A DNA stretch of 64,000 bases from Arboricoccus pini (GTDB lineage: Bacteria; Pseudomonadota; Alphaproteobacteria; Geminicoccales; Geminicoccaceae), in contig NZ_FYEH01000008.1 of NCBI RefSeq assembly GCF_900187945.1, positions 1-64,000 of the forward strand, written 5' to 3'. The notes under the pieces are model-generated. The model was not told where the DNA came from. It saw only the letters and a list, made by a program, of their open reading frames with translations, and did no database searches. Shown here one piece after another: positions 11,781-46,138 of the stretch. A program made the translations under genes and the position numbers. How positions within the stretch are numbered: position 1 is the stretch's first letter; each line of letters begins with the position of its first letter.

Positions 11781-11791
11781 TAATAGGCTTA
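11781..11791 (-). promoter_or_regulatory. TAAGCCTATTA motif upstream of the sulfonate importer
   Basis: Minus-strand TAAGCCTATTA lies 62 bases before the binding protein start in an AT-rich stretch (11757-11845). It matches the AAGCCTAT string at 236-244 that sits a comparable distance before the first importer. It may be an activator site or promoter element; no experimental support can be seen here. Confidence 0.3.
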
Positions 11792-11879
11792 TTCGGCTGC
11801 ATTTCCCGTCGCTGGACTAATTGTCATAATGTAACTTATGCACATTTCTGGGTCTCGTTCGTTCCGTCTGGACGAGGCG

Positions 11880-11897
11880 GCCCCGAGCTTGCGGGGC
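11880..11897 (-). terminator. possible terminator stem after the NAD(P)H-binding gene
   Basis: GCCCCG (11880-11885) and CGGGGC (11892-11897) form a six-pair stem with a 6-base loop, 22 bases beyond the stop of the minus-strand gene at 11920. No clear T-run follows. Confidence 0.25.
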
Positions 11898-11919
11898 AAG
11901 CGCCTTTCCCGGCTGTCGA

Positions 11920-12531: not shown

Positions 12532-12662
12532 GGCTGTTCCTTTCCGTCAGTCTTATGGTATGTAATGGGCACAAAGTATGAAAGGTGGACTGCTGAACGG
12601 AAGCTATGCTGTTCGAACGAAAGCCACAAGAAGTCACGGTCAAACGACAAGGTCACGCCACA

Positions 12663-13043: not shown

Positions 13044-13144
13044 AGCGGATCATGCGTGACCTATGCCCCTAAGTGCAGGCGCGTCTCCGCACGAATGAAA
13101 CCTGCCACGCGCGTAACACCGACGGAATGAGGAGTAATAATCTC

Positions 13145-13435
13145 ATGGTCACATCAAGCGCCACTGTGAGAACCCTGAGCGCCAGCCGGTATCTCCAGCA
13201 ATTGTGCAAGCACTGGAGCCACCGCTTCACCGTCACTTTCGACCCGGCGAAAGGCAACATCGACTTCGGGGAAGGACAGTCGGTTGAACTCTCAGCGAAA
13301 GAGACGGAACTGGTTGTGGTGGTCCGAGACAACGAAGAAGTGAGTCTGGCCAAACTTGAGACTGTTGTCGCGGATCACATCAAGCGCTTCGCTTTCCGCG
13401 AAACACTCGATTTCAACTGGTCGCGACAGACCTGA
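13145..13435 (+). CDS. DUF2218 domain-containing protein
   Basis: This small soluble protein of 96 residues matches the DUF2218 family, whose members are about 90-100 residues with the pattern ASRYLQQLCKHWSHRF near the N-terminus and a final H-x-x-RFAFRE segment. GGAG stands about 12 bases before ATG 13145; an in-frame upstream start at 13073 lacks a ribosome site and adds non-family sequence. The function of DUF2218 is not known to me; such genes often sit near metal or stress genes. Here it lies about 100 bases after the HxlR regulator in the same direction and could share its transcript. Confidence 0.85.
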   Translation: MVTSSATVRTLSASRYLQQLCKHWSHRFTVTFDPAKGNIDFGEGQSVELSAKETELVVVVRDNEEVSLAKLETVVADHIKRFAFRETLDFNWSRQT

Positions 13436-14037
13436 GTCTCGACAAGAAGGACCGCAGCTTCATACATGGTTCCGGACCAACGTCCGTCACCTTGATCAAC
13501 GACAAAGAAACCGAGTTGGCAATCGGAGGCAGCAAAGCCCTTTCGTCCAGCGGATGCCTTGGTGTCAGAGAAGCGGCGCAGCGGATCAATGTCGATCATC
13601 CTGTGCCCGTCCACGCCGAGTTGTGGGGTATGCTAACCACCAGCCGCCGCTGGCGAGGACGCCGGTGCAACTGCTGCTCGCGCCGATCGCCGCCGAGGTC
13701 GCCGCGAGGCCGTTTCACAGTTTACATATAGTGCTCGTCTCTGTTGGGCGTGGCCAGAAAATTGCGTCTATTCCTCTCCTTGCCTTGATCTGCTTAAAAT
13801 TCGCCTCATAAGTAGAAGAAAAATAGGCGATGTCGACTTAAGGGTATTCTTCTATATTCATATATGACTTACAGCACCCTTTCATTGATACCCTCATATC
13901 AGAATGATCCATCCCGGTATAAGAATCCCGGTATAAGAATTGTGCGCGTGATGCTGACGATCATCGGGTTGTCGTCTGATATGGCGTCGCGACGATAAAC
14001 CGCTCCCGGGAGACCAGTAACCGGAGCGCTTTTCAGC
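13436..14037. other. 602-base non-coding stretch with no recognisable gene
   Basis: I see no supported gene here. Short open frames on both strands lack ribosome sites and family motifs. The right half (13740-13960) becomes AT-rich. It holds a tandem 14-base repeat, listed separately. The stretch may be decayed coding sequence, but I cannot name a parent family. Confidence 0.5.
13912..13939. repeat. tandem 14-base direct repeat
   Basis: TCCCGGTATAAGAA occurs twice head to tail at 13912-13925 and 13926-13939 with no mismatch. Each copy contains CGGTATAA. It is 99 bases past the MarR gene's stop side, so it is not in that gene's promoter. It may be slippage or a pair of protein-binding sites. 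Confidence 0.6.
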
Positions 14038-14508
14038 CTAAGGTTCTAGCAAAAAATTGGAGATGATCTTGTCCAGTGAGGATATCAGTTCCTCACGTTG
14101 CTTCTGGCTCAGTCCCGATAAAACGGTTTCCTCGATCTGTTGGGTGATAGCGAAAATCGGGCCTATCCGGTCGATACCAAGAGCGGTCAACGTGACTCTC
14201 TTCAGCCGACGGTCCTTCATGTCCACTTTGCGCTCGATGAAACCCTGCTTCTCCAGGGTGTCGACAATCCGGGCCAGTGTCGCGTCATCGCATTGGAGGG
14301 CATCCACCAGGTTCCTTTGCGAGAGGCCCTCGGGCATCAGAGCAAGATACAGCAGCGGGCGCACTAGCGTGAGTGACAGACCAGTCTCGGCATAGGCGCG
14401 GTCGAGATGGGTCCGCCATAAGGCCGCCAGCCTCATCGTCCGGTAAGTGACGGTGATATCAGGATGTCCGGCTTTCTCCCGATCCATAACGGCCAGAAAC
14501 TTGTTCAT
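14038..14508 (-). CDS. MarR-family transcriptional regulator
   Basis: This 156-residue winged-helix regulator has the MarR pattern: an N-terminal dimerisation helix, LSQRNLVDALQCDDATLARI as recognition segment near residues 70-90, and a wing DMKDRRLKRVTLTALG. The D-x-R-D-R-R motif of the family is present as VDMKDRRLK. ATG 14508 is preserved by GGGAGG eight bases upstream; an ATG five codons earlier has no such site. It is divergent from the aldehyde dehydrogenase gene (225-base gap) and probably represses it, responding to an aromatic or aliphatic aldehyde, alcohol or acid. Confidence 0.9.
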   Translation of the reverse strand: MNKFLAVMDREKAGHPDITVTYRTMRLAALWRTHLDRAYAETGLSLTLVRPLLYLALMPEGLSQRNLVDALQCDDATLARIVDTLEKQGFIERKVDMKDRRLKRVTLTALGIDRIGPIFAITQQIEETVLSGLSQKQREELISSLDKIISNFLLEP

Positions 14509-14586
14509 TCGGCCACCTCCCATCCCGATCCATCAGCTTTTCGTGAAGACATGGCACCTTTTATCAGGACCGTTCCGAGCATATAG

Positions 14587-14598
14587 TCTCATTTGAGA
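14587..14598. promoter_or_regulatory. TCTCA-TT-TGAGA inverted repeat, candidate MarR operator
   Basis: A perfect five-base inverted repeat with a two-base centre lies in the divergent spacer, 79 bases before the MarR start and 136 before the dehydrogenase start. Size and position suit a MarR dimer site, but the arms are short, so this is tentative. Confidence 0.3.
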
Positions 14599-14721
14599 AC
14601 ATTGGCATCATATCCGAGTTGCCGGACTTGGCGAAAAGTGGACGAGCGCTCGACGCATGGTTTGGGTGTGACCAGGAATATGAAGGGACACCTTGGAATG
14701 ATGGCGATTCGACATCTTTAA

Positions 14722-16044
<1,323 letters not shown>

Positions 16045-16107
16045 GAACCCGCCGCCGCAGGTGAGGGATCAGCCCGCTACTTGAAATATCATGAAGGAGC
16101 GTCGGCA

Positions 16108-17724
16108 ATGGCGCGGAATTATTTTGATGTCATTATCGTAGGAAGCGGCGCGGCGGGCTGCGTCATCGCGGATTATCTTGCGCGGAACACGGAAGCCACG
16201 ATCGCCGTCGTCGAGGCAGGTGGCATGGATCGAGATCCGATGATCCATATGCCGGCCGGATATTCCGTCATACTGTCCCACGATCGTCACGTGTGGGCCT
16301 ACGACACGGTTCCTATACATGGCGTGCCGCGCCGATATCGGATGGGCAAGGTCGTTGGCGGCGGCACTTCCGTCAATGCCATGTGCTATGTACGCGGTCA
16401 AAAACAGGATTTCGCCGCATGGCAGGCGGCCGTCGGAGAAACGGGCGACTGGTCTTGGGAAACCATGCTTCAGACATTCATAGAGCAGGAGAAGAACGAC
16501 ACGTTCCACAATGCCCACCACGGCATCGGCGGCCATCTCTCGGTAGAGCTTCCCAAGGGGATCAATGAACTAAACCAGCGCTGCATGAAAGCCTTCCAGG
16601 AATATGGCCTGCCATACAATCCTGACTATAATGGCGTTAGCCAAGTAGGCGTGGCGCCCGTGCAGAGCAACACCGACAATGGCAAGCGTTGCAGCGCGGC
16701 CGTGGCGCATCTGCGCGGGCACCTCAAAAGCGGGCGCGTCACCTTGCTCACCGGGGCGACCGTGACAAAGGTGCTCCTGGATGGCACGCGTGCGGTCGGC
16801 GTCGAGACGCTGCAGCACAAGGCAAAACAGGACATTTCAGCCGGTCTGGTCATTCTTTCCGCCGGCGCCGTCCAGTCGCCCAAGATATTGATGCATTCCG
16901 GCATCGGCCAGAAGGAACAGCTCGAGAAGTTCGACATCCCCGTCATCGCCGCTCTGCCGGGCGTCGGCGAGAATCTGCACGACCATCCGATCATTCCCAT
17001 CACCGCCTATGTGAAAGGCAAGATGGGCTATCAGAGCATCGCCCATGGTTTCGGCTCTCTGGTGGCCGGTGCTCGCTATCTCCTGACGAATGACGGCCCG
17101 GTCTCGGGTAACGGCATCGAGACGGTATCGTATTGGGATCCGACGAACCTGGGCAATGAAGAGCCCACCGTGCAGTGTTATCATGAGCCGATCATTGCCA
17201 CGAACGGTCTCAATGCGACAGGCTCGCGCTCAGGTGTGACGTTCGCGACCGTTGTGCTTCAGCCCAGGAGCCGTGGCTGGGTCCGCCTTGCCGATGGTGA
17301 CCCGACATCCATGCCCCTGATCAATCCTAATTTCATCGGCCACGAATATGACCTCAAGGTCGGCATCGAAGCGGTCAAGGCCGTGCGCAAGGTCATGGCG
17401 CAGGAATCTCTGGCGGAGATCATTGATGAAGAGGTTCTGCCGGGCGCGGACAAGCAGACGGATGAGCAGATAGGCGAATTCGTCAAAAGCGTCGCCACCA
17501 CCATGTGGCACCCGGTCGGCACCTGCCGGATGGGGATAGACGAGATGGCTGTGGTCGATGCCACACTCAAGGTGAAGGGGATCGATGGCCTGCATGTGAT
17601 CGACGCATCCATCATGCCGACCATCACCAGTGGTAATACCAATGCGCCGACCCAGGCGTTGGCATTGCATGCTTCAAAGATGCTGGCGTCGACCTATTTC
17701 AGCAGCCTTTCCCGAGCTGCCTGA
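16108..17724 (+). CDS. GMC-family FAD-dependent alcohol oxidoreductase (AlkJ/choline dehydrogenase-like)
   Basis: This 538-residue flavoprotein starts with DVIIVGSGAAGCVIADYLAR, the FAD-binding fingerprint. It carries the GMC signature GKVVGGGTSVNAMCYVRG near residue 85 and the second signature SAGAVQSPKILMHSGIG near residue 255. The C-terminal catalytic pair is in MWHPVGTCRMG (His) and SGNTNAPTQA (Asn). Length fits AlkJ, choline and polyethylene-glycol dehydrogenases. ATG 16108 is chosen for AGGAG eight bases upstream; a TTG at 16081 would overlap that site. It is probably co-transcribed with the aldehyde dehydrogenase. The substrate alcohol is not predictable from sequence alone. Confidence 0.92.
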   Translation: MARNYFDVIIVGSGAAGCVIADYLARNTEATIAVVEAGGMDRDPMIHMPAGYSVILSHDRHVWAYDTVPIHGVPRRYRMGKVVGGGTSVNAMCYVRGQKQDFAAWQAAVGETGDWSWETMLQTFIEQEKNDTFHNAHHGIGGHLSVELPKGINELNQRCMKAFQEYGLPYNPDYNGVSQVGVAPVQSNTDNGKRCSAAVAHLRGHLKSGRVTLLTGATVTKVLLDGTRAVGVETLQHKAKQDISAGLVILSAGAVQSPKILMHSGIGQKEQLEKFDIPVIAALPGVGENLHDHPIIPITAYVKGKMGYQSIAHGFGSLVAGARYLLTNDGPVSGNGIETVSYWDPTNLGNEEPTVQCYHEPIIATNGLNATGSRSGVTFATVVLQPRSRGWVRLADGDPTSMPLINPNFIGHEYDLKVGIEAVKAVRKVMAQESLAEIIDEEVLPGADKQTDEQIGEFVKSVATTMWHPVGTCRMGIDEMAVVDATLKVKGIDGLHVIDASIMPTITSGNTNAPTQALALHASKMLASTYFSSLSRAA

Positions 17725-18113
17725 AGAAATGTGAGCTATGTATAATTGAGCATATTTCGATCTTGATCGGCCAGGCGTCGCGCGGAGCTGTTCCGGCGGA
17801 TGAAACCGCCAGTACAGCCAGCTGATGGCCGGTATTGCCGGTCTCCTTGATGTCCGCTAACAAAAATTTCAACTGAAAGTTGCTGTCGACGAGGCTGCTA
17901 AACTATGACGATGGGATTATCATCCGGTGCAGTCACGGAGCGTCCACAGATAGGAGCGAGCCACGTCACCCCAGAACGACCAACAGGGTAATGTCGAGCA
18001 GAGCAACGCGCCAGACTGACGACATCGGGCAGCCGACGCACAGCGATTTCACTATGGTCGCTGGAGGAGTAATGGCGATTTCTCAATAACGAGAAAGTAC
18101 ACAGAGCTCTCCA
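17725..18113. other. 389-base stretch with no recognisable gene
   Basis: Short frames are interrupted and show no family motif. This may be decayed sequence upstream of the phospholipase D-like remnant, but I cannot match it. Confidence 0.4.
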
Positions 18114-18473
18114 GTGCGTCGTCGTCGCGGAATTGTCAGATGCGTGGTCGCGTTTTGGGACGATGGGGCGCTCAAGACCCTGTTTGGCTTCAAGAAGCTT
18201 GCGTCTAAAGCGGGAATTATATGCGCTCATCACGATGGACGGGTGCACGCGAAGCTGTATGTCTTAAGCTCCAGCATGGTCGTTACGTCCGCCTATGCCT
18301 CCAATCGAGGCATAGGCTTTGTCGAGCCGGCAATGATCACGGAGTGCGGTATATTTCATGGGCCCGATACGGTTCCGTTCCGTGAAGGTGCACAGTGGTT
18401 GGATGTGATCTGGAAGAAATCCCATGACGTCGATTCCAAGGCCCTCGCCGCAGACCGGGCCGCATGGGTGTAA
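18114..18473 (+). pseudogene. phospholipase D-like protein, C-terminal remnant
   Basis: The frame encodes a VVAFWDDGALKTL segment and then DGRVHAKLYVLSSSMVVTSA followed by YASNRGIG. This is the HxK...(D) catalytic half-motif and the downstream S/N..RG loop of PLD-family nuclease/phospholipase domains. In intact proteins two such motifs and a longer middle occur; here the spacing from AFW to HAK is much shorter than usual and the upstream half is missing. The ASN loop reads SAYASN where relatives have SAN. There is no clear ribosome site. I read it as a truncated, internally deleted gene. Confidence 0.6.
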
Positions 18474-18791
18474 ATCGCCCGCGGCACGGCATGCCCTCAC
18501 CTCACCCACCGTCCACGAAGCTTGCCACGATCGCAGCCGATTCTGATCTGGATCGTGGGATCGGGTGGTGTTTTCCTCGGGCGAGGCCGACCATGAAGAC
18601 GTCCAGCGGGTTGGCCAAAGCGGCGATCAGGCCGGGAGGTCGAGGCCAGAGATGAGCGAGAAGTTGCCTGCCGGCTTACAGCGTGGAGACATCCGAACGA
18701 TGTGGTTCCGCCCAGTGGCGGACCATGGTGCGTGATTGTTCGCAAGCCGCATTTTGAGTATTTCCGGGATGCTCGATCTTGTCGCTTTCGA
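18474..18791. other. 318-base stretch with no recognisable gene
   Basis: No motif-bearing frame is found on either strand. It separates the phospholipase D-like remnant from the stop of the minus-strand short-chain dehydrogenase. Confidence 0.4.
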
Positions 18792-19556
18792 TCACGTAAG
18801 GTTGAGTCCACCATCGGAGAGCAAAATCTCGCCCGTCAAATAATCCGATTGCACGAGCATCATGACTGCTTGCGCAATGTCTTCCGGGCTGGCCGGCCGC
18901 CGCATCGGCGCGCGCGTTCTCCATAACTCTTGGGCTGCCGTCCAGTCGGCTGTTAGCGGTGTGTCAACAAGGCCAGGCGCAACGGCATTTACCCTGATGG
19001 CTGGCGCCAGTGACAATGCAAGTAGCCGTGTCACGTGGTTGAGCGCCGCCTTGGTGGCTGCATATGGAATTGAGGCCCCTTTTGGCCGAACTCCGGCGTG
19101 AGAGCTAATGTTTACGATACAAGCCGTTCGTCCATGCTGCGCCGCGTTGCGGAGCGCGGTCTCAGCTTCAGCTATAAGGTGAAAGGGCGCCACCATATTC
19201 ACTTCGTATAGTGCGTGCCAAATCTCTGAAGTGGCTGCACGTAGATCCGTGTGGGGTATCAAACCGCTCAGACCAGCATTGTTCACCAGTACGTCCAACC
19301 GTCCCCATAGGCCAACAGCGTCATGTATGAGACGTCTGCGGTGGCTTTCTAGGGCTAAGTCGGCTTGAATATAGCCGGCAAATTTAAGCTCGGCCGCAAG
19401 AGCCCGGCCTTTATCCTCGGAATTACGAGAATGAAAGATAACATTATACCCTTCCTGCACGAACCTCCGGGCTACGGATTCGCCAATTCCAGATGTTGAG
19501 CCTGTGACAAGGGCGACGGGACGATAATCTTCCACCAGGCTAAACTCTTCTCTCAA
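18792..19556 (-). CDS. short-chain dehydrogenase/reductase (classical SDR)
   Basis: This 254-residue NAD(P)-dependent oxidoreductase shows the classical SDR order: TGSTSGIGESVARRF (TGxxxGxG cofactor site), NNAGLSG, catalytic Ser in IVNISSHAG, YAATKAALNH (YxxxK) and the PGLVDTPL segment after it. The end, YLTGEILLSDGGLN, is the usual C-terminal motif. An Arg after the second strand (FHSRNSED) suggests NADPH. The first codon is TTG 19556 with GAGG nine bases upstream; GTG seven codons later is an alternative. It stands alone, upstream of but separated by 170 bases from the second Dpp operon's end, so substrate and regulation are unknown. Confidence 0.9.
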   Translation of the reverse strand: MREEFSLVEDYRPVALVTGSTSGIGESVARRFVQEGYNVIFHSRNSEDKGRALAAELKFAGYIQADLALESHRRRLIHDAVGLWGRLDVLVNNAGLSGLIPHTDLRAATSEIWHALYEVNMVAPFHLIAEAETALRNAAQHGRTACIVNISSHAGVRPKGASIPYAATKAALNHVTRLLALSLAPAIRVNAVAPGLVDTPLTADWTAAQELWRTRAPMRRPASPEDIAQAVMMLVQSDYLTGEILLSDGGLNLT

Positions 19557-36831: not shown

Positions 36832-37701
36832 ATGTCGATCTTTTTGTCTCGCCGGGCGATGATTGCCGGGTTGTCGATTGCCTCAGGAGCTATAATCGTA
36901 GGCCCTGCATGGGCTCAGAGTGATCCAGCGATTGCCGCGATCGAGCAGCGCCATGGCGGCCGGCTGGGAGTTTTTGCCGTTGACACCGGGTCGAACCGAG
37001 CGCTCGCACATCGCTCCGACGAACGGTTTCTTATGTGCAGCACTTTCAAGGGTCTGCTCGGCGCGCTGATCTTGGCGAGGGTGGACCAGGGTAAGGAAAG
37101 CCTGCAGCGCCGAGTCACCTATAGCGAGCAGGACCTGATTTTTACGTCGCCTATCACCAAGACCAATGTCGCAAAAGGCCAGATGTCAGTGGAGGACCTT
37201 CTTGAGGCCATGCTGGTGTATAGCGACAATACCGCCGCCATCCTGCTCATGCGTAGCGCTGGCGGGCCTGCGGCGCTCACGCAGTTCTTGCGGGGTATCG
37301 GGGACACTGTCACGCGCTCTGATCGCTACGAGCCGAAGTCGAACCAGTACGATGGGGCGCTCGACACCACTTCGCCGCGCGCGATCATTGGATCGGCTTA
37401 CCAAATACTCATCGGAAACGTGCTCACGCCAGCCTCTCGGGCGCGCCTTGAATCCGGTATGATTGCGTGTAAGCCCGGCGTCAGGCGCATCCGCGCGTCC
37501 TTGCCTGCAAGCTGGTCTATTGGCGACAGGCCAGGTGAGAATGTGACCGAAGAATCGAACGACTATGCCATTGTGCGTCCGCCCGGTCGTGCACCTCTGC
37601 TGATAGCGACATACTACGATGACCCGCATAGGAGCACAGCCGATCGCGAGGCGGTCATCCGCGATGTTGGGTCCGCATTTGTCGCCTGGGCAAACGGTTA
37701 A
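36832..37701 (+). CDS. class A beta-lactamase-like serine hydrolase with altered KTG motif
   Basis: This 289-residue exported protein has an SRRAMIAGLSIASGA signal (Tat-like arginine pair) ending at AWA near residue 28. It keeps the catalytic Ser-Thr-Phe-Lys (70-73), SDN (131-133) and the omega-loop Glu in YEPKSN (Glu 167, Asn 171). The third conserved box, normally K-T/S-G, reads R-P-G (233-235, in SIGDRPGEN). Arg at the Lys place occurs in some active enzymes, but Pro at the next position is very unusual and would remove a hydroxyl that orients the beta-lactam carboxylate. A Cys precedes Ser 70 (MCSTFK), but no partner Cys is seen after the RPG box. It may be a weak beta-lactamase or a peptidoglycan- or ester-directed hydrolase. 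Confidence 0.88.
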   Translation: MSIFLSRRAMIAGLSIASGAIIVGPAWAQSDPAIAAIEQRHGGRLGVFAVDTGSNRALAHRSDERFLMCSTFKGLLGALILARVDQGKESLQRRVTYSEQDLIFTSPITKTNVAKGQMSVEDLLEAMLVYSDNTAAILLMRSAGGPAALTQFLRGIGDTVTRSDRYEPKSNQYDGALDTTSPRAIIGSAYQILIGNVLTPASRARLESGMIACKPGVRRIRASLPASWSIGDRPGENVTEESNDYAIVRPPGRAPLLIATYYDDPHRSTADREAVIRDVGSAFVAWANG

Positions 37702-37707
37702 GCCACT

Positions 37708-38889
37708 ATGAGCACCGGTCATCGCAACCCCCGGATCGACCTGATCCGGGGTATCTCGATACTTCTTGTGCTGCTGCATCACTTCAACATCGCGTATCGT
37801 CTGAACGATACGCCGTTGGCACAGCTGATAAGCTGGGATGCCGTGAGAGCCGTCGTCCGAAACGGCAATTACGGCGTGACGATGTTTTTCGTTATCTCGG
37901 GCTATCTCATTACGTCGAATGCAAACCGGCGTTGGCCTGATTTTGCGCGCATGGATCTGCGTGGCTTCTATGTATTGCGCATCGCGCGCATTGTTCCTTG
38001 CCTTCTTCTGCTGCTTGGTGTCGCCGATATACTCGCGTTGAGCGGCATTGCCATTTTCCAAAACCACGCTCCACAGGGAACGCTGGTCTCGCTTTGGGTC
38101 GTGAACCTCGCATCCCTGACCTTCTGGATGAATGTCCTGATTGGCCTCTACGGCTGGGTCAACTATCCGCTAGGCGTGCTATGGTCCTTGTCAGTCGAGG
38201 AAGTCTTCTATCTAACGTTCCCTCTGCTCTGCGTGCTACTGCGCCGCCCATCGCGATTGATCGCTTTCTGGGCCGTGATCATTGTTGTCGGCCCCCTCTA
38301 TCGTGCGGCGCACCAGGGCGATGAAGGCGACTTCCTCTATTCTTATTTCGCGTGTTTCGACGGAATTGCCATTGGCTGCTGTACGGCATTGCTGGCCGGC
38401 AAGCGGCCGATGCCCCTTCTCGCCAGCTGGCCGGTTCAGATCCTGACCTTGATCCTCATGGCGTTCCTTTACCTCTCTTATCCCATTAGCGAGACGAATA
38501 TTCTCGGTGTGACGGTAATGGCCTTGGGGACGGCCCTGCTGCTCATCGGTGCGCATCACGGACACGGCGAGGTATCTCAAGGGCGGGCTGGCGCTGGCCT
38601 GCGGTGGTTCGGGAGGCATAGCTACGAACTATACCTTCTTCACTTACTTTTTCTGGGAGCCATGCGGAGCATTTTGGTTCCTCATGCTGTGGGGGGTGCC
38701 GAGAAGCTGCTCTTGCTATCTGCCTTCCTCTTGCTCTCTGCAGCCTTCAGCCATGTCATCGCACGGTTCTATGCCGAGCCCTTAAACTTCTTTCTTCGCC
38801 GCTTGTTGTGGAGGCCTGCAAGGGCTGGCGAAAGTTCTGTGCCGACTGAGGAACCGGCGTCGTGTTGGTGGGCACGAGGACCACATTAA
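37708..38889 (+). CDS. membrane acyltransferase, acyltransferase-3 family
   Basis: This 393-residue integral membrane protein has about ten hydrophobic helices and the family's opening pattern, RIDLIRGISILLVLLHHFNI, with the catalytic-type His in that first helix. GNYGVTMFFVISGYLIT and YPLGVLWSLSVEEVFYLTFP are hallmark segments (R/H..FF.ISGYL; LWSL..EE.FY). Members transfer acetyl, succinyl or other acyl groups to sugars or lipids at the membrane (OafA/NolX type). It starts six bases after the beta-lactamase-like stop, so the two form an operon under the LysR gene, hinting at a shared envelope substrate. Confidence 0.9.
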   Translation: MSTGHRNPRIDLIRGISILLVLLHHFNIAYRLNDTPLAQLISWDAVRAVVRNGNYGVTMFFVISGYLITSNANRRWPDFARMDLRGFYVLRIARIVPCLLLLLGVADILALSGIAIFQNHAPQGTLVSLWVVNLASLTFWMNVLIGLYGWVNYPLGVLWSLSVEEVFYLTFPLLCVLLRRPSRLIAFWAVIIVVGPLYRAAHQGDEGDFLYSYFACFDGIAIGCCTALLAGKRPMPLLASWPVQILTLILMAFLYLSYPISETNILGVTVMALGTALLLIGAHHGHGEVSQGRAGAGLRWFGRHSYELYLLHLLFLGAMRSILVPHAVGGAEKLLLLSAFLLLSAAFSHVIARFYAEPLNFFLRRLLWRPARAGESSVPTEEPASCWWARGPH

Positions 38890-38986
38890 CGCTTTCAGGC
38901 TTTCGCGATAGGATAGGAGCACCCTGTTTTTCCGGCGGTGGCAATGGTAAGGGGGCTTTACGAATGACGATTGCGCCGGGTGTCTT

Positions 38987-40198
38987 TTGAATAATGCATG
39001 GCAACAGGCCGAAATTGACGCACCGCCGCTGACAGAAAGCGCGCGGGCGGTCCTGCGGACGATCGCCAGCAACGGGCCTGCCACCAGACCACAATTGAGC
39101 GCTGCTCTGATGTTCTCCAAGCCCACAATGTCCGCGGCGGTCAGCGAGCTCGAACGTTATGATCTTCTGGCACCTGTAGGCGTCAATCGCGGCTCGGTCG
39201 GGCGCAGCTCGGTCACCTACGGCCTTGGCCCCAGGGCCGGCTTCGTTGTCGGGATCGATTGCGGGACGACGCATGTCAACGCGATCGCGCGCGGTCTCGA
39301 TGGCGCAACGCTGGCCACGGTAGGAATGCAGCTGGTGGATAAGTCCGCCGCCGAACGGTTTCAGCTGGTCGAAGAGATTATCAAGCAGTTGCTCTCGCAG
39401 TCCGAAGCGCGATCGACACCACTGCGTGCTTTGGTTATCGCTCTTCCCAACATCATCTCCGCCTCGCTCGAGAGAATGTTCGGCCGCGATATACTGCTAC
39501 CCATACTGGCACGGCTGCAATCCACCTACGGCGCACCTATACTCTTAGAAAATAACGTCAATTGCGCCGCTCTCGCCGAGTATCACGAAGGAGCTGCAAA
39601 GCATCACTCCTTCGCGATCTATATGCAGATCGGCGTGAAGACCGGCATGGGCATCGTACTCGATGGGCGGCTGTTCCGCGGCTTCAAGGGAGGCGCCGGC
39701 GAAATCGGCCATCTGCCATTTCCCTGGTCGGAGCGAGAGCAGCCGAAGTGGCAGCAGGTGGAAACCTATATGGGCTCGGCGGCTTTGCTGGAGCGCGCGG
39801 CCATGAGCTGGCCGAAGAAGGACGGAGCGCCGCCAGGAAGCACCAGCGATCTCTTTGCGCGCGTCGAGCAGTCTCTGGCTGCGCGCACCATTGTCGAACA
39901 ACATGCCCGAGACATCGGAAACCTGGCCGCTGCTTGTGTAAGCGTGTTGGATCCGGAACTGATCGTACTTGGTGGCGGTGTCGGGCAAAATCCGCAGCTG
40001 CTGCCGAGTGTGAGGCGCGTCGTGAATGAATTGTGTTGGGCCGTCGAAGTCGTCAATGGCCAGTTGGCCGACCAGGCGACCGTTCTCGGCGCCGTGCGCC
40101 TTGCCATGGATTTCGCCATGGCAAGGCTTTTAGGAGAGGAAGGAAAGCCCGCTTTCCTCTATCCGGAAGCGCTGACCGTGGATCGGATCAGCGTTTAG
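38987..40198 (+). CDS. ROK-family transcriptional regulator
   Basis: This 403-residue protein has an N-terminal winged helix (SARAVLRTIASNGPATRPQL, MFSKPTMSAAVSELERYDLL) and a C-terminal ROK kinase-like domain (FVVGIDCGTTHVNAIA, ILLENNVNCAALAEYHEGAA, GGAGEIGHLPF, LIVLGGGVGQNP). The zinc site CxCGxxGCxE that normally follows GEIGH is absent; the protein reads WSEREQPKWQQVE there. The start appears to be TTG 38987; no ATG or GTG lies in frame near it, so it may be slightly off. Its gene is convergent with the kinase/importer/SIS operon (8-base gap), which it presumably controls in response to an amino sugar-like ligand. Confidence 0.88.
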   Translation: MNNAWQQAEIDAPPLTESARAVLRTIASNGPATRPQLSAALMFSKPTMSAAVSELERYDLLAPVGVNRGSVGRSSVTYGLGPRAGFVVGIDCGTTHVNAIARGLDGATLATVGMQLVDKSAAERFQLVEEIIKQLLSQSEARSTPLRALVIALPNIISASLERMFGRDILLPILARLQSTYGAPILLENNVNCAALAEYHEGAAKHHSFAIYMQIGVKTGMGIVLDGRLFRGFKGGAGEIGHLPFPWSEREQPKWQQVETYMGSAALLERAAMSWPKKDGAPPGSTSDLFARVEQSLAARTIVEQHARDIGNLAAACVSVLDPELIVLGGGVGQNPQLLPSVRRVVNELCWAVEVVNGQLADQATVLGAVRLAMDFAMARLLGEEGKPAFLYPEALTVDRISV

Positions 40199-40205
40199 CC
40201 GCTGC

Positions 40206-41213
40206 TCAAACGTCCCGCTTGGTGTCGGTCTGCCGGTAGCGGAATTCGCAGACTGGCAGTCCGGCGTCTTCCGAAAGCGTGGCAATGAGCAACTGCGCCG
40301 GCATAGCCTGCAGGATTGCGTCGCCGATGCCTTCGGAAAAGGCCGGAACATGGATGACGACCAGATTGTCGGCGTCTGCGATATCGGCTCTCGATGTTAC
40401 CAGAACGGTGGGAATGCCAAAGCCAGCGAGATCCTGCGCCAGCTTGACTTCCCGCCCGTGACCGAACAGCAATACGCCGCTGTCTTGATCGTTCGGCTCC
40501 ATCGGACCGTGCAGAAAGTTCAGCGTATCCCAGTCCTGGGCTGCCACACGCGCTGCTTCGCGAATGAGAAGTGCTGCATAGCCGGCTGTCCCGTAGGCCG
40601 TGCCTGCACCCACGCAATCGATCGACTTCTTGCCGGCAAATAGCTTGGCGGCCTTCTCTGCCTGTGCACGCGTCGTCTTCAAGACGGCTTCGGCTCGACC
40701 CGATATCTCGGCCCATTTCGTGGCTGATGGGCGTCCGGCCTTGTCGGCAAGGAGCGCCGCGGTTAGCAGCGAGCCCAGATAGCTCGTCGTGTTCGGACCA
40801 CTGTCGTTGCCACTCCCGGTCGCGATCATGTGCTTGACGACACGGGAAATCGGCGTGCCATCTGCTTTGGCGACACCGTAAGATTCTGCATTCGGGCGAA
40901 GCTCCATCGCACGCGCCGGTTCTTCGCTGCGTCCGGATGCGGAAAAGGCGATATAGGCTCCGCCGGCATCGATCGATGCATCATAGAGATCCGTGCCCGG
41001 CAACGCGAAGGCCCGAATGCCTTGCGCACGCATCTGAGCCGCGGCCACGATGGCCGCGTAGAGGCTGGCGCCGATGCCAACCAGGATCGCAGGGCCTTTC
41101 GCGATAGGCGCAACGTCAAGGGCTTCAAGCCGCCTTGAAACGGCTTCGAGGCAGGATTTCAGGGCTTCGGGCTGGAGCGCGATCGCTTCGCGATAAGGCA
41201 ATTTGTCCGACAT
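40206..41213 (-). CDS. double SIS-domain sugar isomerase/deglycase-like protein
   Basis: This 335-residue protein has two sugar-isomerase (SIS) domains: GPAILVGIGASLYAAIVAAA with IAFSASGRSEEPARAMEL, and SIDCVGAGTAYGTAGYAALL with LNFLHGPMEPNDQDSGVLLF. The fold and size fit AgaS, the isomerase half of GlmS, and the fructoselysine-6-phosphate deglycase FrlB. The second domain's HGP motif is shared with those enzymes. ATG 41213 follows AAAGGA. It ends the minus-strand operon whose other genes encode a sugar kinase and an amino-acid-type importer. That pairing suggests a 6-phosphorylated amino sugar or fructosyl-amino acid as substrate. Confidence 0.87.
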   Translation of the reverse strand: MSDKLPYREAIALQPEALKSCLEAVSRRLEALDVAPIAKGPAILVGIGASLYAAIVAAAQMRAQGIRAFALPGTDLYDASIDAGGAYIAFSASGRSEEPARAMELRPNAESYGVAKADGTPISRVVKHMIATGSGNDSGPNTTSYLGSLLTAALLADKAGRPSATKWAEISGRAEAVLKTTRAQAEKAAKLFAGKKSIDCVGAGTAYGTAGYAALLIREAARVAAQDWDTLNFLHGPMEPNDQDSGVLLFGHGREVKLAQDLAGFGIPTVLVTSRADIADADNLVVIHVPAFSEGIGDAILQAMPAQLLIATLSEDAGLPVCEFRYRQTDTKRDV

Positions 41214-41280
41214 GATCATTCCTTTATTTTTTGTAAAAAAAGCGGCCGCGCAGATCGCGGTTGCCAGGGAATTGCCGGTT

Positions 41281-42171
41281 TCAATCCAACTTCATGTAAT
41301 CGGCGAAACGCGCAGCATCGTTGACGGTGACTTTGTCCAGCTTGTTCTCGCCGAGACCCCATTTTTCGAAGATCTTGGCGTAAGAGCCGTCATCGATCAT
41401 CGACTGCATGGTGGCTGCCAGGACATCGCGCAATTGCGGGTTGTCCTTGCCGACTAGCATTGACTGATAGCCGACGGCATATTGGCTGCCTTTGACGAGT
41501 TCGAGCTTCTTGCTGCCTTCGGGCTGGTGCTGAAGGCTGTAGGCTGCAACGCCCGTCGTATCCATGGAGAGGTCCACGCGCCCGCTCTGCAATGCAATCG
41601 TAATCTGATCGTTTGAGGGGAACTGCATGACGTTGAGCGGCTTGTCGGCCGGGCAAAGCGTCTTCTGCTTGTCGAGAAGCTGGAGCGGGATGGAGCCCTG
41701 AACCGCGCCAGCATTCAACCCGCAAGCGTCTTTGAGCTTGTGTATGTCCTTCGGATTGCCTTCCAGAACTAGAATGCTGGTGCCTTCGAGCATGTAGTTG
41801 ACGACATCGACAATCTTCTCGCGCTCGGCAAAATCGCCGAGACCCGACATGCCCATGTCGAAACGACCGGCCTGGATGCCGGGAATGATGCTCGCGAATT
41901 GAGCGGGAATGTCGGTAAACTTCACGCCAAGGCGCGTACCCATTTCGTCGCGAAGCTCACGCTCAAGACCGATGATCGTCTTGTTGTCCTCGCCGTAAAA
42001 ATCGTATGGTGGCGTTTGCGGCTCAGTGCCGACTTTGATTTCACCCGCCGATTTGATCTTTTCCGGCAGCATATCATGCAACTTCTGGTCAACGCCCGCC
42101 GCCCATGCGGTAGAGCTTGCCAGCGCAGCTGCGGCCACCAGGATGATCGTCAGATTGATCTTTCCCGTCAT
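41281..42171 (-). CDS. ABC transporter substrate-binding protein, polar amino acid family 3
   Basis: This 296-residue periplasmic binding protein has a signal peptide (MTGKINLTIILVAAAALASS then TAWA) and the family-3 order: AGEIKVGTEPQTPPYDF at the mature start, IIGLERELRDEMGTRLGVKF, PGIQAGRFDMGMSGLGDFAE and a second lobe with ITIALQSGRVDLSMDTTG. AAGGGA lies eight bases before ATG 42171; an upstream TTG or ATG to 42219 lacks one. Family 3 usually binds amino acids, opines or amino-acid-sugar conjugates. With the SIS and kinase genes a conjugate ligand is attractive. Confidence 0.9.
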   Translation of the reverse strand: MTGKINLTIILVAAAALASSTAWAAGVDQKLHDMLPEKIKSAGEIKVGTEPQTPPYDFYGEDNKTIIGLERELRDEMGTRLGVKFTDIPAQFASIIPGIQAGRFDMGMSGLGDFAEREKIVDVVNYMLEGTSILVLEGNPKDIHKLKDACGLNAGAVQGSIPLQLLDKQKTLCPADKPLNVMQFPSNDQITIALQSGRVDLSMDTTGVAAYSLQHQPEGSKKLELVKGSQYAVGYQSMLVGKDNPQLRDVLAATMQSMIDDGSYAKIFEKWGLGENKLDKVTVNDAARFADYMKLD

Positions 42172-42238
42172 CGGTAATCCCTTTTTCTCCTGATGCACGT
42201 GAAGGACGTGCGGCCTCATTTCGATGCCTGCCTGCCGG

Positions 42239-43023
<785 letters not shown>

Positions 43024-43027
<4 letters not shown>

Positions 43028-43890
43028 CCGTTTCTCCCTTCGGCGCGCATCAGCCGCAGGGCGTTCGTCACGAATCCGGGCGTCTGGTTCGTTGACTTGC
43101 CAAGTCGCTGCTCGACGATGAACTGAATGGCGGAGGCGATCGTCGTCATGACGAGGTACCAGATGCTTGCGACGATCAGTAGTTCGATAATCAAAAAGTT
43201 GCGCGCGTAGATGTTTTGTGCCCGTGTCAGCAGGTCCTGAGCCGCAACGATCGAGACCAGCGAGGTCGTCTTCAGCATCGAGATCGTCTGATTGCCGATC
43301 GGCGGGATGATGACGCGAAGCGCCTGAGGGAAAATGATGCGGAGCATGGCCTGGCCCGGCGTATAGCCGAGGGCTTTGGCGGCTTCGTGCTGACCGCTGT
43401 CCACCGCCATCAGCCCGCCGCGAATGATTTCGGCCATGTAGGCCGCCTCGTTGAGACTGAGGGCAAGAAGCGCTGCGATGAAGGCCGTGATGATCGAATT
43501 AGTATCGACGTGAAACGAACCGATATCAATACTCGGTATGAACAGCTGAATATTGAACCAGAAAATAATCTGAACCAGTAGCGGCGTGCCACGAAAGAAC
43601 CAGATGTAGAGGCTTGCGAAGGCGGAAAGCACGGGGTTTGGAGAAAGCCGCATCATCGCCAGGATCGCCCCGGCGATGATGCTTATGACCATCGACAAGA
43701 CGGTGAAAAGGATCGTCAACTTGATCCCGTCGAGGATCGTTTCATCGAAAATATACTGCGGTATGGCCGACCAGATGATGTGCCGGCTGGTCGCCACCAG
43801 AGACACCAGCAAGGCGACGATAATAATGAGCAACAACGCCACTGCACGCTGTCCCCAGTTTCGCGCTGGGATGATTTTTGGGGTCGTCAT
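43024..43890 (-). CDS. ABC transporter permease, polar amino acid type (HisM/GlnP-like)
   Basis: This 288-residue permease has about five to six helices and the family's EAA loop as [20 protein letters not shown] followed by [25 protein letters not shown] and [15 protein letters not shown] are further hallmark segments. ATG 43890 follows GGAGAG and overlaps the kinase stop as ATGA. A single permease gene is present, so it should work as a homodimer. Confidence 0.93.
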
Positions 43891-44840
43891 GCGGCTCTCC
43901 AATCACGCGCGGTCTTCAACTCGCCATCGACATGCGGCAGTGGAAAAGTTGCGGGCAGAGTGCCGGCGCTGAGCTTGCGCGCCAGCGCCATCGCTCCCAC
44001 AACGGGCTGTTCGCGCAGCAATGTCAGCGTCACATCCGGCAGGCGATTTGCCAGGGCGGTTTGGAATGCAGCAAGAAGGCGTGGCTGCCGGGCTATAACG
44101 CCACCGCCGGTCACGACGTGACCGCGCGGCGCGCCACGACGCACCAGTTGCTCAACGAGCGCCGAAAGCGCCACGCCCGCATCGGCGATAACCTTCTGCG
44201 CCGGCTTCGAGCCTGCATCCGCGGCGTAAAAGACGAGCGGAGCGAGCCGGCCAATACCGGCGGCCGTGCCGATCTCGCCAAGCGTTCGACCGAGTTCGAT
44301 GGGAGACGAGATGGCCAGAGCCTCCATCAGGTTCTGGCCGAGGGCATCGAGCGTGCCTCCCTGATCAAGCGTAAGGCGCACGGCGCGCGCGGCCTCGCGC
44401 ACCAGTCCGCTGGCGCTGCCTTCGTCGCCCAGGTACCAGCCCCATCCCCCCGATGCGATCATTCTTCGCAATGCATCGCGCGCCACGGCGATCGAGCCTG
44501 TGCCGCTGATGACCGAAATGCCGCTCTCTTTGCCTGCCGCAGGCAGGAGAAGTTCGGAATCGTTGAGAACCAGGACCGTGCCACGCAGGCGGGAGGCAAG
44601 CTTTGTTTGCAGCTCCAGTCGATCCTCATCGCTGTCGCAACCATGGGCGCCGACGACAGTGACTACCGGCATCGCTCCGGCGGTCGTAACGAGCAGCGAG
44701 ACAAGCGCGTTGACGTCTGCGTCGTGATCGGCCCGTCCGCGCCATTCGGCCGTGGCCACTAACGCATCGCCGACCGCGCTGCCATCGCGCTCGGCGATGA
44801 GCTGGGTTTTCGTGCCGCCAATATCTATTCCGACAATCAT
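43887..44840 (-). CDS. BadF/BadG-type sugar kinase, N-acetylglucosamine kinase-like
   Basis: This 317-residue protein is an ASKHA-fold kinase. It begins IVGIDIGGTKTQLIAERDGS (phosphate-1 loop), has VISGTGSIAVARDALRRMIA (phosphate-2) followed by the GGWGWYLGDEGSASGLVREA segment typical of N-acetylglucosamine and N-acetylmuramic acid kinases in the BadF/BadG/BcrA/BcrD family, and VTGGGVIARQP (adenosine). It leads the minus-strand operon with permease, ATPase, binding protein and SIS gene. It probably phosphorylates the imported amino sugar or sugar conjugate at carbon 6 so that the SIS protein can act. Confidence 0.9.
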   Translation of the reverse strand: MIVGIDIGGTKTQLIAERDGSAVGDALVATAEWRGRADHDADVNALVSLLVTTAGAMPVVTVVGAHGCDSDEDRLELQTKLASRLRGTVLVLNDSELLLPAAGKESGISVISGTGSIAVARDALRRMIASGGWGWYLGDEGSASGLVREAARAVRLTLDQGGTLDALGQNLMEALAISSPIELGRTLGEIGTAAGIGRLAPLVFYAADAGSKPAQKVIADAGVALSALVEQLVRRGAPRGHVVTGGGVIARQPRLLAAFQTALANRLPDVTLTLLREQPVVGAMALARKLSAGTLPATFPLPHVDGELKTARDWRAA

Positions 44841-44856
44841 GTACCAGCTTCCGTTT

Positions 44857-44875
44857 GTTAGGCAACTTACCTAAC
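44857..44875. promoter_or_regulatory. GTTAGG-N7-CCTAAC inverted repeat, candidate ROK operator
   Basis: Perfect six-base arms GTTAGG (44857-44862) and CCTAAC (44870-44875) flank a 7-base centre, 17 bases before the kinase ATG. The TTAG...CTAA frame resembles operators of ROK repressors such as XylR-type proteins. Its position over the ribosome-site/promoter region fits repression by the ROK protein encoded at 38987. Confidence 0.6.
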
Positions 44876-45079
44876 TATATGGAAGACGCAAGCAGTACTT
44901 GGCCGGTCGTTGCAGCCCATCCGAGCGGGCATGCGCGAGCGTGGAACGGGGCGATTCCTGGAGCGTTGCGAAACGTCGAGGAGATCCTTTCTGGCATGTG
45001 CAGCCGAGGAGGGTGATGGCTGCGGACGGCCGACGCCAGCTAGGCCATGTGACCGAATTTGAACGAGCATGGCCGAGGC

Positions 45080-45223
45080 GCAAAACAGAGATGGCCAGAA
45101 GCTCGCGTAGGATTTTTCGCATCAGGGCGCAACACGACTGATTGCGCCGCCCGCGCGAAGCTCCGGCAGCCAGACGGCGATACGACAGCGTAGGCAAAGC
45201 GGGACATTTTGGGTGACGAACAT
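45080..45223 (-). pseudogene. cas2e: cas2 (type I-E) remnant with frameshift
   Basis: An ATG at 45223 with GAGGAGG ten bases upstream opens a frame reading FVTQNVPLCLRCRIAVWLPE and LRAGGAISRVAP before TGA at 45122. This matches the N-terminal third of Cas2e ([29 protein letters not shown]). After a one-base shift the next frame continues MRKILRELLAI, which fits the following Cas2e helix. The C-terminal half, including the FQTFG region, is not traceable. The gene once followed cas1, as in all type I-E loci, but cas1's body is deleted. Confidence 0.7.
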
Positions 45224-45263
45224 CTTCGGCAACCCTCCTCAACGGTTGCGCTGCCGAGAGGCT

Positions 45264-45398
45264 CAGCACCCCCTGGCTATCGATGACGACGAAGGTGCCA
45301 TCTTGAACGTCGATCTGGCCCCTTTCGATAAAGACCAGCGAGGAGCGATCCTTGAGCGGGATGGGCCGAGGGGGCGCCATGCCCGGAAGCACGCTCAC
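45264..45398 (-). pseudogene. cas1e: cas1 (type I-E) N-terminal fragment
   Basis: The frame begins at GTG 45398, overlapping the cas6e stop as GTGA. It reads PPRPIPLKDRSSLVFIERGQ then IDVQDGTFVVIDSQGVL, matching the first 45 residues of Cas1e (PLKDRVSxxFLxYGQIDVxDGAFVLIDxxG). Homology stops near 45264, and the cas2 ribosome site begins only about 25 bases later, so roughly 250 codons containing all catalytic residues are deleted. The open frame runs on to 44871 but that part is out-of-frame cas2 and spacer, not Cas1. Confidence 0.8.
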
Positions 45399-46138
45399 CG
45401 ACCGTTGCTCCTGGCGCGGCGGATGAGCATCAGGCCGCAGCCCCAGGCCCTGGCCTTGCCGAAGCCGGCATGGAGGCGGCGCAAAAAGCGCGAAGGATCG
45501 TCGACGCGCAGCTTGCCATCGAATTCCAGCATGGAGAACCTAATTGGGCTCGAGGCCGGACCACGCGGAACGCGGATCTGCTCATAACCATCGATGCGCA
45601 GGCTCGCCTCCGGATCGAGCAGCGTGAAGACCGCCGTCTCACCTTGGCGCTCGAGCCAGGCCAGACCTGCACTGCGAATCGCAACCTCGCGACGTTCCGA
45701 CCTGCTTCCCGCGAAAGCGCCGTCGGCCGGGGAAGAGAGTGCGTGCATGACGACGTCATGGTAGCGCTGAGTCTTTCCGGGCCCCTTTCTTTCCGGGTCG
45801 TGGCGCAGGCGGCGGACGGGATTGGCACGCAGGGAAAATGAGAGCTGGTCGCCGGCGCGAAGGACTGGCGACCATTGCTTGGTCTCCAGCGGCTCGAAAA
45901 GACCGTGCGGATCGAGCGGGGGCCTGGCCGACAGGACGAGAAAGCCGGCCTGGCCCGTGCCCTCCTCGCGCCAGAGAAAATCCCTCCGGCGATCCGCCGT
46001 GTCGGCAAAGAGCGTCCAGACCAGCCGGTGGGCGGTTCCGGTGCGGGCATGCGGATCGTCCGGCATGAGCAGGGGCCCCAGGGCGGAGAGTGCCCCATCA
46101 CGGCGCAACCGCACGCGACTGAGATAAGCCATCGTCAT
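45395..46138 (-). CDS. cas6e: CRISPR-associated endoribonuclease Cas6e (Cse3/CasE)
   Basis: This 247-residue protein fits Cas6e, which cuts CRISPR precursor RNA in type I-E systems and stays on the crRNA 3' handle. It starts YLSRVRLRRD, has HRLVWTLFADTADRRRDFLW (where the catalytic His is in the HRLVW segment), the FSLRANPVRRLR strand, and the C-terminal glycine-rich loop FGKARAWGCGLMLIRRA. Length is slightly above the 200-230 usual. GGAG precedes ATG 46138. The frame is intact, yet cas3, cas8e, cse2, cas7 and cas5 are absent upstream and cas1/cas2 downstream are broken, so the protein has no visible partners or array here. Confidence 0.88.
   Translation of the reverse strand: MTMAYLSRVRLRRDGALSALGPLLMPDDPHARTGTAHRLVWTLFADTADRRRDFLWREEGTGQAGFLVLSARPPLDPHGLFEPLETKQWSPVLRAGDQLSFSLRANPVRRLRHDPERKGPGKTQRYHDVVMHALSSPADGAFAGSRSERREVAIRSAGLAWLERQGETAVFTLLDPEASLRIDGYEQIRVPRGPASSPIRFSMLEFDGKLRVDDPSRFLRRLHAGFGKARAWGCGLMLIRRARSNGR

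What the first reader, a model, noticed from the sequence alone, without database searches (positions are those of the whole stretch)
38987..44875. ROK regulator, BadF-type kinase, amino-acid-type importer and SIS protein: candidate Amadori-product or amino-sugar pathway
Seen: minus-strand operon of kinase, HisM-like permease, HisP-like ATPase, family-3 binding protein and double-SIS protein, convergent with a ROK regulator. Known: FrlB-type deglycases are SIS proteins that split phosphorylated fructosyl-amino acids; family-3 importers carry amino acids, opines and such conjugates. The usual partner kinase FrlD is PfkB-type; here a BadF/N-acetylglucosamine-kinase-type protein takes that place, and no NagA deacetylase or NagB is seen. 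This combination looks like a non-standard version of conjugate catabolism.
Basis: partly seen in the sequence, partly recalled or inferred. Interest (0 to 1): 0.62.

Follow-up and report, generated by a model that had tools for sequence, protein, structure and literature searches.

The report
Mobile kinase-SIS amino-sugar uptake cassette
A six-gene cassette that moves between soil bacteria appears to import a nitrogen-containing sugar compound, phosphorylate it and split it; its exact food is unknown, but its set of parts matches none of the characterised pathways compared here.

Summary
In detail: kinase, permease, ATPase, family-3 binding protein and double-SIS protein on the minus strand, tail-to-tail with a ROK regulator. 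It is a discrete mobile unit: 6.1 kb is 90.8% identical to a Rhizobiales contig that shares nothing else in 17 kb. The SIS gene is in 1 of 31 genomes of the window's order and 1 of 385 drawn from its class. Kinase is found in 78 and ROK in 77 of 79 related loci, while the importer is exchanged: amino-acid, sugar or oligopeptide type, or a YfcC permease. A 19-bp palindrome at 44857-44875 is the likely operator: a matrix trained on amino-acid-type loci puts its best site upstream of a cassette gene in 45 of 48 other loci.

I favour uptake, phosphorylation and GlmS-type cleavage of an N-substituted 2-amino sugar (sugar-amino-acid conjugate), about 0.5; a plain amino sugar is the main rival, 0.35. 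No substrate was tested.

The parts
38924..45003 (.). transferred unit, as delimited by the single match to L018
   Evidence: 90.8% DNA identity over 6087 aligned columns, no other match at E 1e-5 between the 17-kb locus and the window
38987..40198 (+). ROK-family regulator with N-terminal helix-turn-helix-like region (TTG start as listed)
   Evidence: PF00480 131.5 bits; MarR_2 22.1 bits, below its 27-bit cut-off
40206..41219 (-). double-SIS protein, GlmS-isomerase/GlcN6P-deaminase fold, with E and H 16 residues apart and a C-terminal FRYRQTDTK motif
   Evidence: PF01380 35.5 bits; AF2 pLDDT 91.9; Z 38.3 to 1moq; RE-x15-HG in 80 of 80
41281..42219 (-). family-3 solute-binding protein; R133 invariant, canonical amine-binding Asp position is Thr
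   Evidence: PF00497 96.6 bits
42239..43027 (-). ABC ATPase, amino-acid-importer type
   Evidence: PF00005 117.2 bits; EhuA-like 307.8 bits, cut-off 345.4
43024..43902 (-). single ABC permease, amino-acid-importer type
   Evidence: PF00528 88.2 bits; HEQRo_perm_3TM 71.1 bits over its 42.2 cut-off
43887..44840 (-). BadF/NAGK-type sugar kinase
   Evidence: PF01869 66.3 bits over 31.5; family profile nearest MurNAc/GlcNAc kinase 8zo3, 128.8 bits, then Sulfolobus hexokinase, 100 bits
44857..44875 (.). palindromic operator GTTAGGTAAGTTGCCTAAC (minus-strand reading), 16 bases before the kinase start; inferred ROK site
   Evidence: only site in the genome at up to 2 mismatches

Best explanation
A horizontally moved, inducible catabolic cassette. 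Without substrate the ROK protein holds the 19-bp operator before the kinase gene and silences the operon. The family-3 importer takes up a carboxylated amino-sugar compound; the BadF/NAGK-type kinase puts a phosphate on the sugar (6-position inferred from relatives); the GlmS/NagB-II-type SIS protein then opens the ring and expels the 2-amino group, giving fructose 6-phosphate and an amine. The most likely substrate is an N-substituted 2-amino-2-deoxyhexose, that is a sugar-amino-acid conjugate of the Heyns type, so that the amine released is an amino acid. Shown by sequence: gene content, recurrence, mobility, operator conservation, fold class, conserved E/H pair. Inferred: that ROK binds this operator, each chemical step, the substrate.
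For: (1) Kinase and ROK accompany this SIS in 70 and 69 of 71 genome loci and 8 and 8 of 8 plasmid loci; the three misses (kinase L046; ROK L081, L084) lie where the contig ends; the ROK of L086 is 8 kb off. (2) The same operator stands with amino-acid-type and sugar-type importers, so probably the same effector: 45 of 48 held-out loci; Saccharopolyspora (L088) has it too. (3) Importer families in the slot: family-3, CUT1, Opp/Dpp with oligo_HPY domains (L086), YfcC (L015); my inference is a compound part sugar, part amino acid. (4) In Agrobacterium L012 operator-like sites precede two D-beta-hydroxy-amino-acid aldolase-type genes: 24.7 bits before a D-threonine-aldolase-like gene, 18.1 bits between a BhcC-like gene and SIS; the best score in shuffled loci was 16.8. 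(5) SIS fold is GlmS-like (Z 38.3) over FrlB (27.1), and its profile scores NagB-II and GlmS chains (71 and 67 bits) over FrlB-type 3eua (45 bits); this fits cleavage at C2. (6) Kinase profile nearest to a MurNAc/GlcNAc kinase, which accepts N-substituted glucosamines. (7) The binding protein keeps the arginine that in family 3 binds a carboxylate (recalled role) and has Thr where the amine-binding Asp (recalled role) should be. (8) The genome already carries a relative of the S. meliloti glucosamine operon (L102).
Against: No substrate evidence of any kind. GlmS-type fold and GlcNAc-type kinase equally suit a plain amino sugar, and the second-best kinase match is a hexokinase. The two odd importers are the weakest cases: L015 has no operator and the best site of L086 is not before the cassette, though a 17.3-bit site lies 121 bases before its kinase. 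Accessory genes differ between clades (BKACE, APH plus class-III PLP enzyme, aldolases); the APH pair has no operator, and none lies in the window's own cassette. The tree puts the SIS family in no characterised group. The SIS C-terminal tail could not be mapped with certainty on the GlmS Schiff-base lysine. Importer exchange could mean that substrates differ between clades.
Confidence: 0.5

Rival explanations
1. Plain amino-sugar catabolism: the kinase phosphorylates glucosamine (or galactosamine, mannosamine or similar) and the SIS protein is a glucosamine-6-phosphate-deaminase-like enzyme that releases ammonia. No deacetylase is needed because the sugar is not acetylated.
For: Nearest solved relatives of the SIS family are NagB-II and GlmS; nearest kinase relatives include GlcNAc/MurNAc kinases. 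A ROK + CUT1 + SIS + sugar kinase operon of S. meliloti (L096) fits SM_b21216-21221 by arrangement (the record is unannotated), whose kinase SM_b21217 is called a glucosamine kinase from mutant fitness (PMC11378808, passages).
Against: SIS is far below the NagB-II equivalog cut-off (22.9 of 430 bits) and in a separate clade from SMb21218-type and NagB-II-like proteins; the S. meliloti kinase is PfkB-type. The window's genome already has a relative of that operon (L102). Operator-controlled aldolases in L012 and the oligopeptide-type importer in L086 are not needed for this.
Confidence: 0.35
2. Amadori-product pathway: fructosyl-amino acid, phosphorylated and split by an FrlB-like deglycase.
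For: Cassette or its relative lies beside FrlB-like + PfkB + family-3 operons in L010 and L015, and beside an FrlB-clade SIS in L014. The C-tail holds an RY pair as FrlB-type tails do.
Against: FrlB model not among the matches; six FrlB-type proteins form their own clade on a branch of 3.01, though the SM_b21218 pair is as remote, 3.31; Z 27.1 to FrlB 8glr against 38.3 for GlmS; no PfkB kinase.
Confidence: 0.1

Closest known systems
S. meliloti SM_b21216-SM_b21221 glucosamine operon (L096, identified by arrangement)
   Same: ROK regulator, ABC importer, sugar kinase, SIS protein, no deacetylase seen beside them; same kind of layout as the CUT1-type cassettes (importer and ROK genes read by eye)
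   Different: kinase is PfkB-type and SIS is in another clade; the window uses a family-3 importer
NagK/NagB-II of Shewanella (NF046058, NF046059; structures 8eol, 8eym, 8fdb)
   Same: BadF-type kinase with SIS-type enzyme; nearest solved sequence to the SIS family
   Different: 58.6 of 370 and 22.9 of 430 bits; C-tail FRYRxxDTK where NagB-II-like proteins end in KVTET or the like; no NagA in the cassette
GlmS isomerase domain and archaeal GlcN6P deaminase (1moq, 2cb0)
   Same: among the best fold matches, Z 38.3 and 36.7
   Different: 20 and 18% identity; no glutaminase domain; stands in a catabolic cassette
FrlB-type deglycases (8glr, 3eua; 3fkj and 2a3n by recalled kinship)
   Same: SIS protein beside kinase and importer; E/H pair conserved in the three FrlB-clade proteins aligned
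   Different: fold more distant (Z 27.1 to 28.9), separate clade, PfkB kinase partner
MurNAc/GlcNAc kinase 8zo3
   Same: best match of the kinase profile, 128.8 bits
   Different: partner here is not a MurQ-type etherase; no MurQ model among the SIS matches

Membership tests
FrlB-type 6-phosphofructosamine deglycase pathway | SIS protein matches the FrlB model NF008481 | tested here: not met
   not among families at E up to 0.001
FrlB-type 6-phosphofructosamine deglycase pathway | PfkB-type (FrlD) kinase | tested here: not met
   kinase is PF01869, its only Pfam match at E 0.001
FrlB-type 6-phosphofructosamine deglycase pathway | SIS protein groups with FrlB proteins | tested here: not met
   separate starred clades; the tool warns of long branches
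FrlB-type 6-phosphofructosamine deglycase pathway | activity on 6-phosphofructosyl-amino acids | not testable with these tools
   no assay
NagB-II glucosamine-6-phosphate deaminase | score over the NF046059 cut-off | tested here: not met
   22.9 bits of 430
NagB-II glucosamine-6-phosphate deaminase | catalytic Glu/His pair 16 residues apart (roles recalled from GlmS) | tested here: met
   RE-x15-HG in 80 of 80 cassette proteins
NagB-II glucosamine-6-phosphate deaminase | C-terminal lysine equivalent to GlmS Lys603 (recalled) | tested here: inconclusive
   alignment places K of DTK at the lysine of the other tails, with gaps
S. meliloti glucosamine operon type | PfkB kinase orthologous to SM_b21217 | tested here: not met
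   window kinase is BadF-type; pSymB has no PF01869 match over cut-off
BadF/BcrA/NAGK kinase family (PF01869) | score over gathering cut-off | tested here: met
   66.3 of 31.5 bits
ROK repressors (NagC/Mlc type) | ROK domain | tested here: met
   PF00480 131.5 bits
ROK repressors (NagC/Mlc type) | DNA-binding N-terminus | tested here: inconclusive
   MarR_2 match at residues 14-60, 22.1 bits, under its 27-bit cut-off
ROK repressors (NagC/Mlc type) | zinc motif CxCGxxGC (recalled) | tested here: not met
   0 of 78 orthologues
Family-3 solute-binding proteins (PF00497) | score over gathering cut-off | tested here: met
   96.6 of 26.4 bits
Family-3 solute-binding proteins (PF00497) | carboxylate Arg and amine Asp (recalled roles) | tested here: inconclusive
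   Arg aligned and invariant; Asp position is Thr, with an Asp one residue before

The most novel reading that the evidence does not exclude
A bacterial route for Heyns-type sugar-amino-acid conjugates: a GlcNAc-kinase-type enzyme phosphorylates the N-substituted 2-amino-2-deoxy sugar, and a GlmS-fold SIS enzyme splits it into fructose 6-phosphate and the amino acid, as the C2 counterpart of the FrlD/FrlB route for Amadori products. It spreads as a ROK-operator cassette with exchangeable importers and amino-acid enzymes.
Probability: 0.3. Interest if true: 0.72.

Novelty: new variant of a known kind. Interest (0 to 1): 0.5.

Why it matters
The constant kinase/SIS/ROK core with one operator and several importer families gives a clean, testable prediction: one sensed substrate class, several ways in. 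If the substrate is a sugar-amino-acid conjugate linked at C2, it would give bacteria of soil and roots a way to use the Heyns half of early glycation products, beside the known Amadori half. It also shows that naming such SIS genes by their neighbourhood as FrlB deglycases can mislead.

Tried and rejected
FrlB deglycase: rejected on model and fold, and not contradicted by the tree. MurQ-type etherase (suggested by the MurNAc-kinase likeness): no MurQ model among the SIS matches. Direct orthology to the S. meliloti glucosamine system: rejected. D-glucosaminate dehydratase identity for the L012 aldolases: recalled idea; one search listed three papers, none usable; models say BhcC/D-threonine-aldolase type. 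Binding-protein fold comparison: dropped, model too poor (pLDDT 65.1). APH plus class-III PLP genes as part of the regulon: not supported, no operator, although they adjoin ROK in 8 of 79 loci. tRNA or long repeats at the cassette edges: 0 tRNA genes in the window; the repeats listed are of 18-27 bases in two copies. Operator-like site at L086:12419 before a PQQ dehydrogenase (21.0 bits): left open.

Counting cautions. The genome scan used the patterns FRYR[QM][TQ]DT and [WH]DT[LR][NH][FY]LHG, so conservation of those motifs is partly built in and remote members are missed. The 8 plasmid loci are those I fetched of 25 records with a match. L013 and L064 are the same record. Many loci are near relatives, so counts are not independent events. 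Presence of genes was counted by tblastn score and distance; with a looser score and a shorter ROK distance one search gave kinase 78, ROK 76 of 79. The operator matrix was made from the loci that it scanned; one search is the held-out test, trained on 16 distinct sites from 31 loci, with single-base shuffles as control. The tree used 26 of 80 cassette SIS rows and 5 of 7 NagB-II-like rows (L114 came out as a fragment, L118 was not recovered; L117 is partial) and holds no GlmS row. A4 holds 30, A5 29 and A3 16 rows. One search scored at most 5 candidates a genome. In L096, L101 and L102 importer and regulator genes were read by eye; only kinase and SIS were scanned.

Literature: searches showed me no paper on this cassette, but lists were capped (20 of 59, 20 of 49, 20 of 102 and 10 of 62 papers). 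Apart from passages of PMC11378808 and PMC4961836, and a term search in PMC9609667 that found no passage, I saw listings and abstract beginnings only.

Full report
What is there. Searches confirm the six genes, order and strands. The unit is compact: kinase and permease overlap, permease and ATPase overlap, and the SIS and ROK genes end 7 bases apart. The listed ROK start is TTG.

It is a mobile unit. Comparison of the 17-kb locus L018 (Rhizobiales bacterium AFS050986) with the whole window gives one match only at E 1e-5, window 38924-45003, 90.8% over 6087 columns. Seven plasmid records of Rhizobium and Agrobacterium cover at least 80% of the query 38750-45400, the best at 79.0%; two of them are equally long records of one strain. 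In the window's own order only its own genome of 31 has the SIS gene at E 1e-30; in an even draw from the class only its own of 385 at E 1e-60. A scan of named genomes with the SIS alignment gave 71 loci, mostly Rhizobium, Mesorhizobium, Phyllobacterium, Devosia and Inquilinus, and one Saccharopolyspora contig.

Core and exchangeable parts. Of the 71 loci 70 have the kinase and 69 the ROK gene; of the 8 plasmid loci that I fetched all 8 have both. The misses, L046 for the kinase and L081 and L084 for ROK, lie where contigs end. The ROK gene of L086 is 8 kb away. The importer differs: family-3 type in 28 of 71 and 3 of 8; CUT1 sugar type in 41 of 71 and 4 of 8; neither in L084, L086 and L015. 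L086 has an oligopeptide-type importer with two oligo_HPY ATPases, next to an enolase-superfamily enzyme and an aldo-keto reductase. L015, a Klebsiella plasmid, has a YfcC-family permease and lies beside a LacI, FrlB-like, PfkB, family-3 operon. Further enzymes are clade-specific: a BKACE-family gene inside the CUT1 operon in 17 of 71 loci, whose copy in L013 passes the cut-off of the 3,5-dioxohexanoate:acetyl-CoA acetone transferase model; BhcC-like genes in L012, L047, L078 and L079, two of them scanned and under the 690-bit cut-off (562.4 and 581.2), with a remote relative in L053; an APH kinase plus class-III PLP enzyme in 8 of 79.

The operator. The kinase start is preceded by GTTAGGTAAGTTGCCTAAC. 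The strict form TTAGG-N7-CCTAA occurs once each in 22 of 79 loci, all with the family-3 importer and all just upstream of the kinase, and in the window. A matrix trained on family-3 loci alone then scanned the 48 other loci: its best site in the entire locus lies within 300 bp upstream of a cassette gene in 45 of 48; the exceptions are L015, L084 and L086. In 36 of 48 the score reaches or exceeds the best of the shuffled loci. The window's genome has exactly one site at up to 2 mismatches. So the regulator and its site stay the same when the importer changes from amino-acid to sugar type, which argues for one sensed compound class. In Agrobacterium L012 there are sites before the sugar importer (23.4 bits), between the BhcC-like gene and the SIS gene (18.1) and before a D-threonine-aldolase-like gene (24.7), against a best of 16.8 in shuffled loci. 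That ROK binds the site is inferred from co-conservation.

What the enzymes are. SIS: 30 aligned family members share E221, H237 and the tail R327 Y328 D332 T333 K334; RE-x15-HG stands in 80 of 80 and FRYR..DTK in 75 of 80 (biased by the scan patterns, see Tried and rejected). The AF2 model has pLDDT 91.9. VIA-align gives GlmS isomerase domain Z 38.3 (1moq, rmsd 2.6, 331 aligned), Pyrococcus GlcN6P deaminase 36.7 (2cb0), Stenotrophomonas GlcN6P deaminase 35.3 (7kqa), NagB-II 33.1 (8fdb), against 27.4 (3eua, 3fkj), 27.1 (FrlB 8glr) and 28.9 (2a3n) (that 3fkj and 2a3n are deglycase relatives is recalled). The family profile agrees: NagB-II 71 bits, human GFAT 67, 3eua 45. In the tree the cassette proteins, with the unlabelled L106 and L011_SIS2 rows inside (98/93), stand apart from FrlB-type (100/99), NagB-II-like (100/99) and SM_b21218-type (100/100) groups; it does not say which of these is nearest, and the tool warns of long branches. 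Kinase: profile nearest to MurNAc/GlcNAc kinase 8zo3 (128.8 bits), then Sulfolobus hexokinase (100) and human NAGK (58.7). Binding protein: R133, G128-D129-F130 and T221 invariant in 16; in the alignments R133 falls on the canonical carboxylate arginine and T221 on the canonical amine-binding aspartate (roles recalled).

Setting in the genome. The genome also has NagA, a relative of the S. meliloti glucosamine operon with PfkB kinase (L102) and a third operon with BadF kinase, CUT1 importer, DeoR-type regulator (by eye) and a SIS protein nearest GlmD, 133.8 of 580 bits (L101). No FrlB relative was found in it at E 1e-25. A 2024 paper calls SM_b21217 a glucosamine kinase from mutant fitness (PMC11378808, passages); a 2016 paper predicted D-galactosamine for the same genes (PMC4961836, passages). 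I take L096 for that operon from its gene order, as the record is unannotated. Either way a plain amino-sugar route seems already present, which weakly disfavours a second one.

How it most likely works. Import, 6-phosphorylation and GlmS-type release of the C2 amine, under ROK control. GlmS-type chemistry and a kinase class that accepts N-substituted glucosamine point to a 2-amino sugar; importers of amino-acid, sugar and oligopeptide type, operator-controlled aldolases, and a binding protein with a carboxylate arginine point to an amino-acid part. The simplest compound with both is a Heyns-type conjugate. This is inference; a free amino sugar remains nearly as likely.

Verdict. Real, mobile, and differing from each characterised relative compared here in kinase, SIS clade or importer. 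It belongs to a known kind (kinase plus SIS catabolism of amino sugars and conjugates), so I rate it a new variant; interest 0.5.

Noticed in passing
window 45245-46138 (-): A Cas6e gene (45395-46138) is followed by only about the first 50 residues of a Cas1e (21-bit match), then unmatched sequence up to the cassette: apparently a broken type I-E CRISPR remnant beside the unit.
   Followed up: partly
window 36832-37701 (+): A class-A beta-lactamase-like protein (by eye; not scanned) beside a divergent LysR gene, separated from the cassette by one gene.
   Followed up: no
L101 (own genome C13:28000-47000), kinase 8072-9049, SIS 12139-13113: A second BadF-kinase plus SIS operon with CUT1 importer and DeoR-type regulator (by eye), SIS nearest to GlmD but far under its cut-off.
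   Followed up: partly
L088, Saccharopolyspora indica contig: Actinobacterial copy of the cassette with family-3 importer and the same operator core: apparent transfer across phyla.
   Followed up: partly
L015, Klebsiella plasmid, 7006-18828: Remote kinase/SIS/ROK set with a YfcC permease directly beside an FrlB/FrlD-like operon with family-3 importer.
   Followed up: partly
L048 10243-12704 and 7 similar loci: APH-type kinase plus class-III PLP enzyme (phospholyase-type relatives, recalled) divergent from ROK, conserved from Rhizobium to Devosia but without the operator.
   Followed up: partly
L086 12419: A 21.0-bit operator-like site before a PQQ-dehydrogenase gene, the best site of that locus; meaning unknown.
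   Followed up: no
L042, record titled Mycobacterium sp. KBS0706: Cassette gene identities like those of Inquilinus limosus (L045), same G+C of 0.708; the record name may be wrong.
   Followed up: no
L011 12374-13489: Gene annotated as isonitrile-synthase family, with TRAP importer and another SIS protein, next to the Agrobacterium cassette.
   Followed up: no
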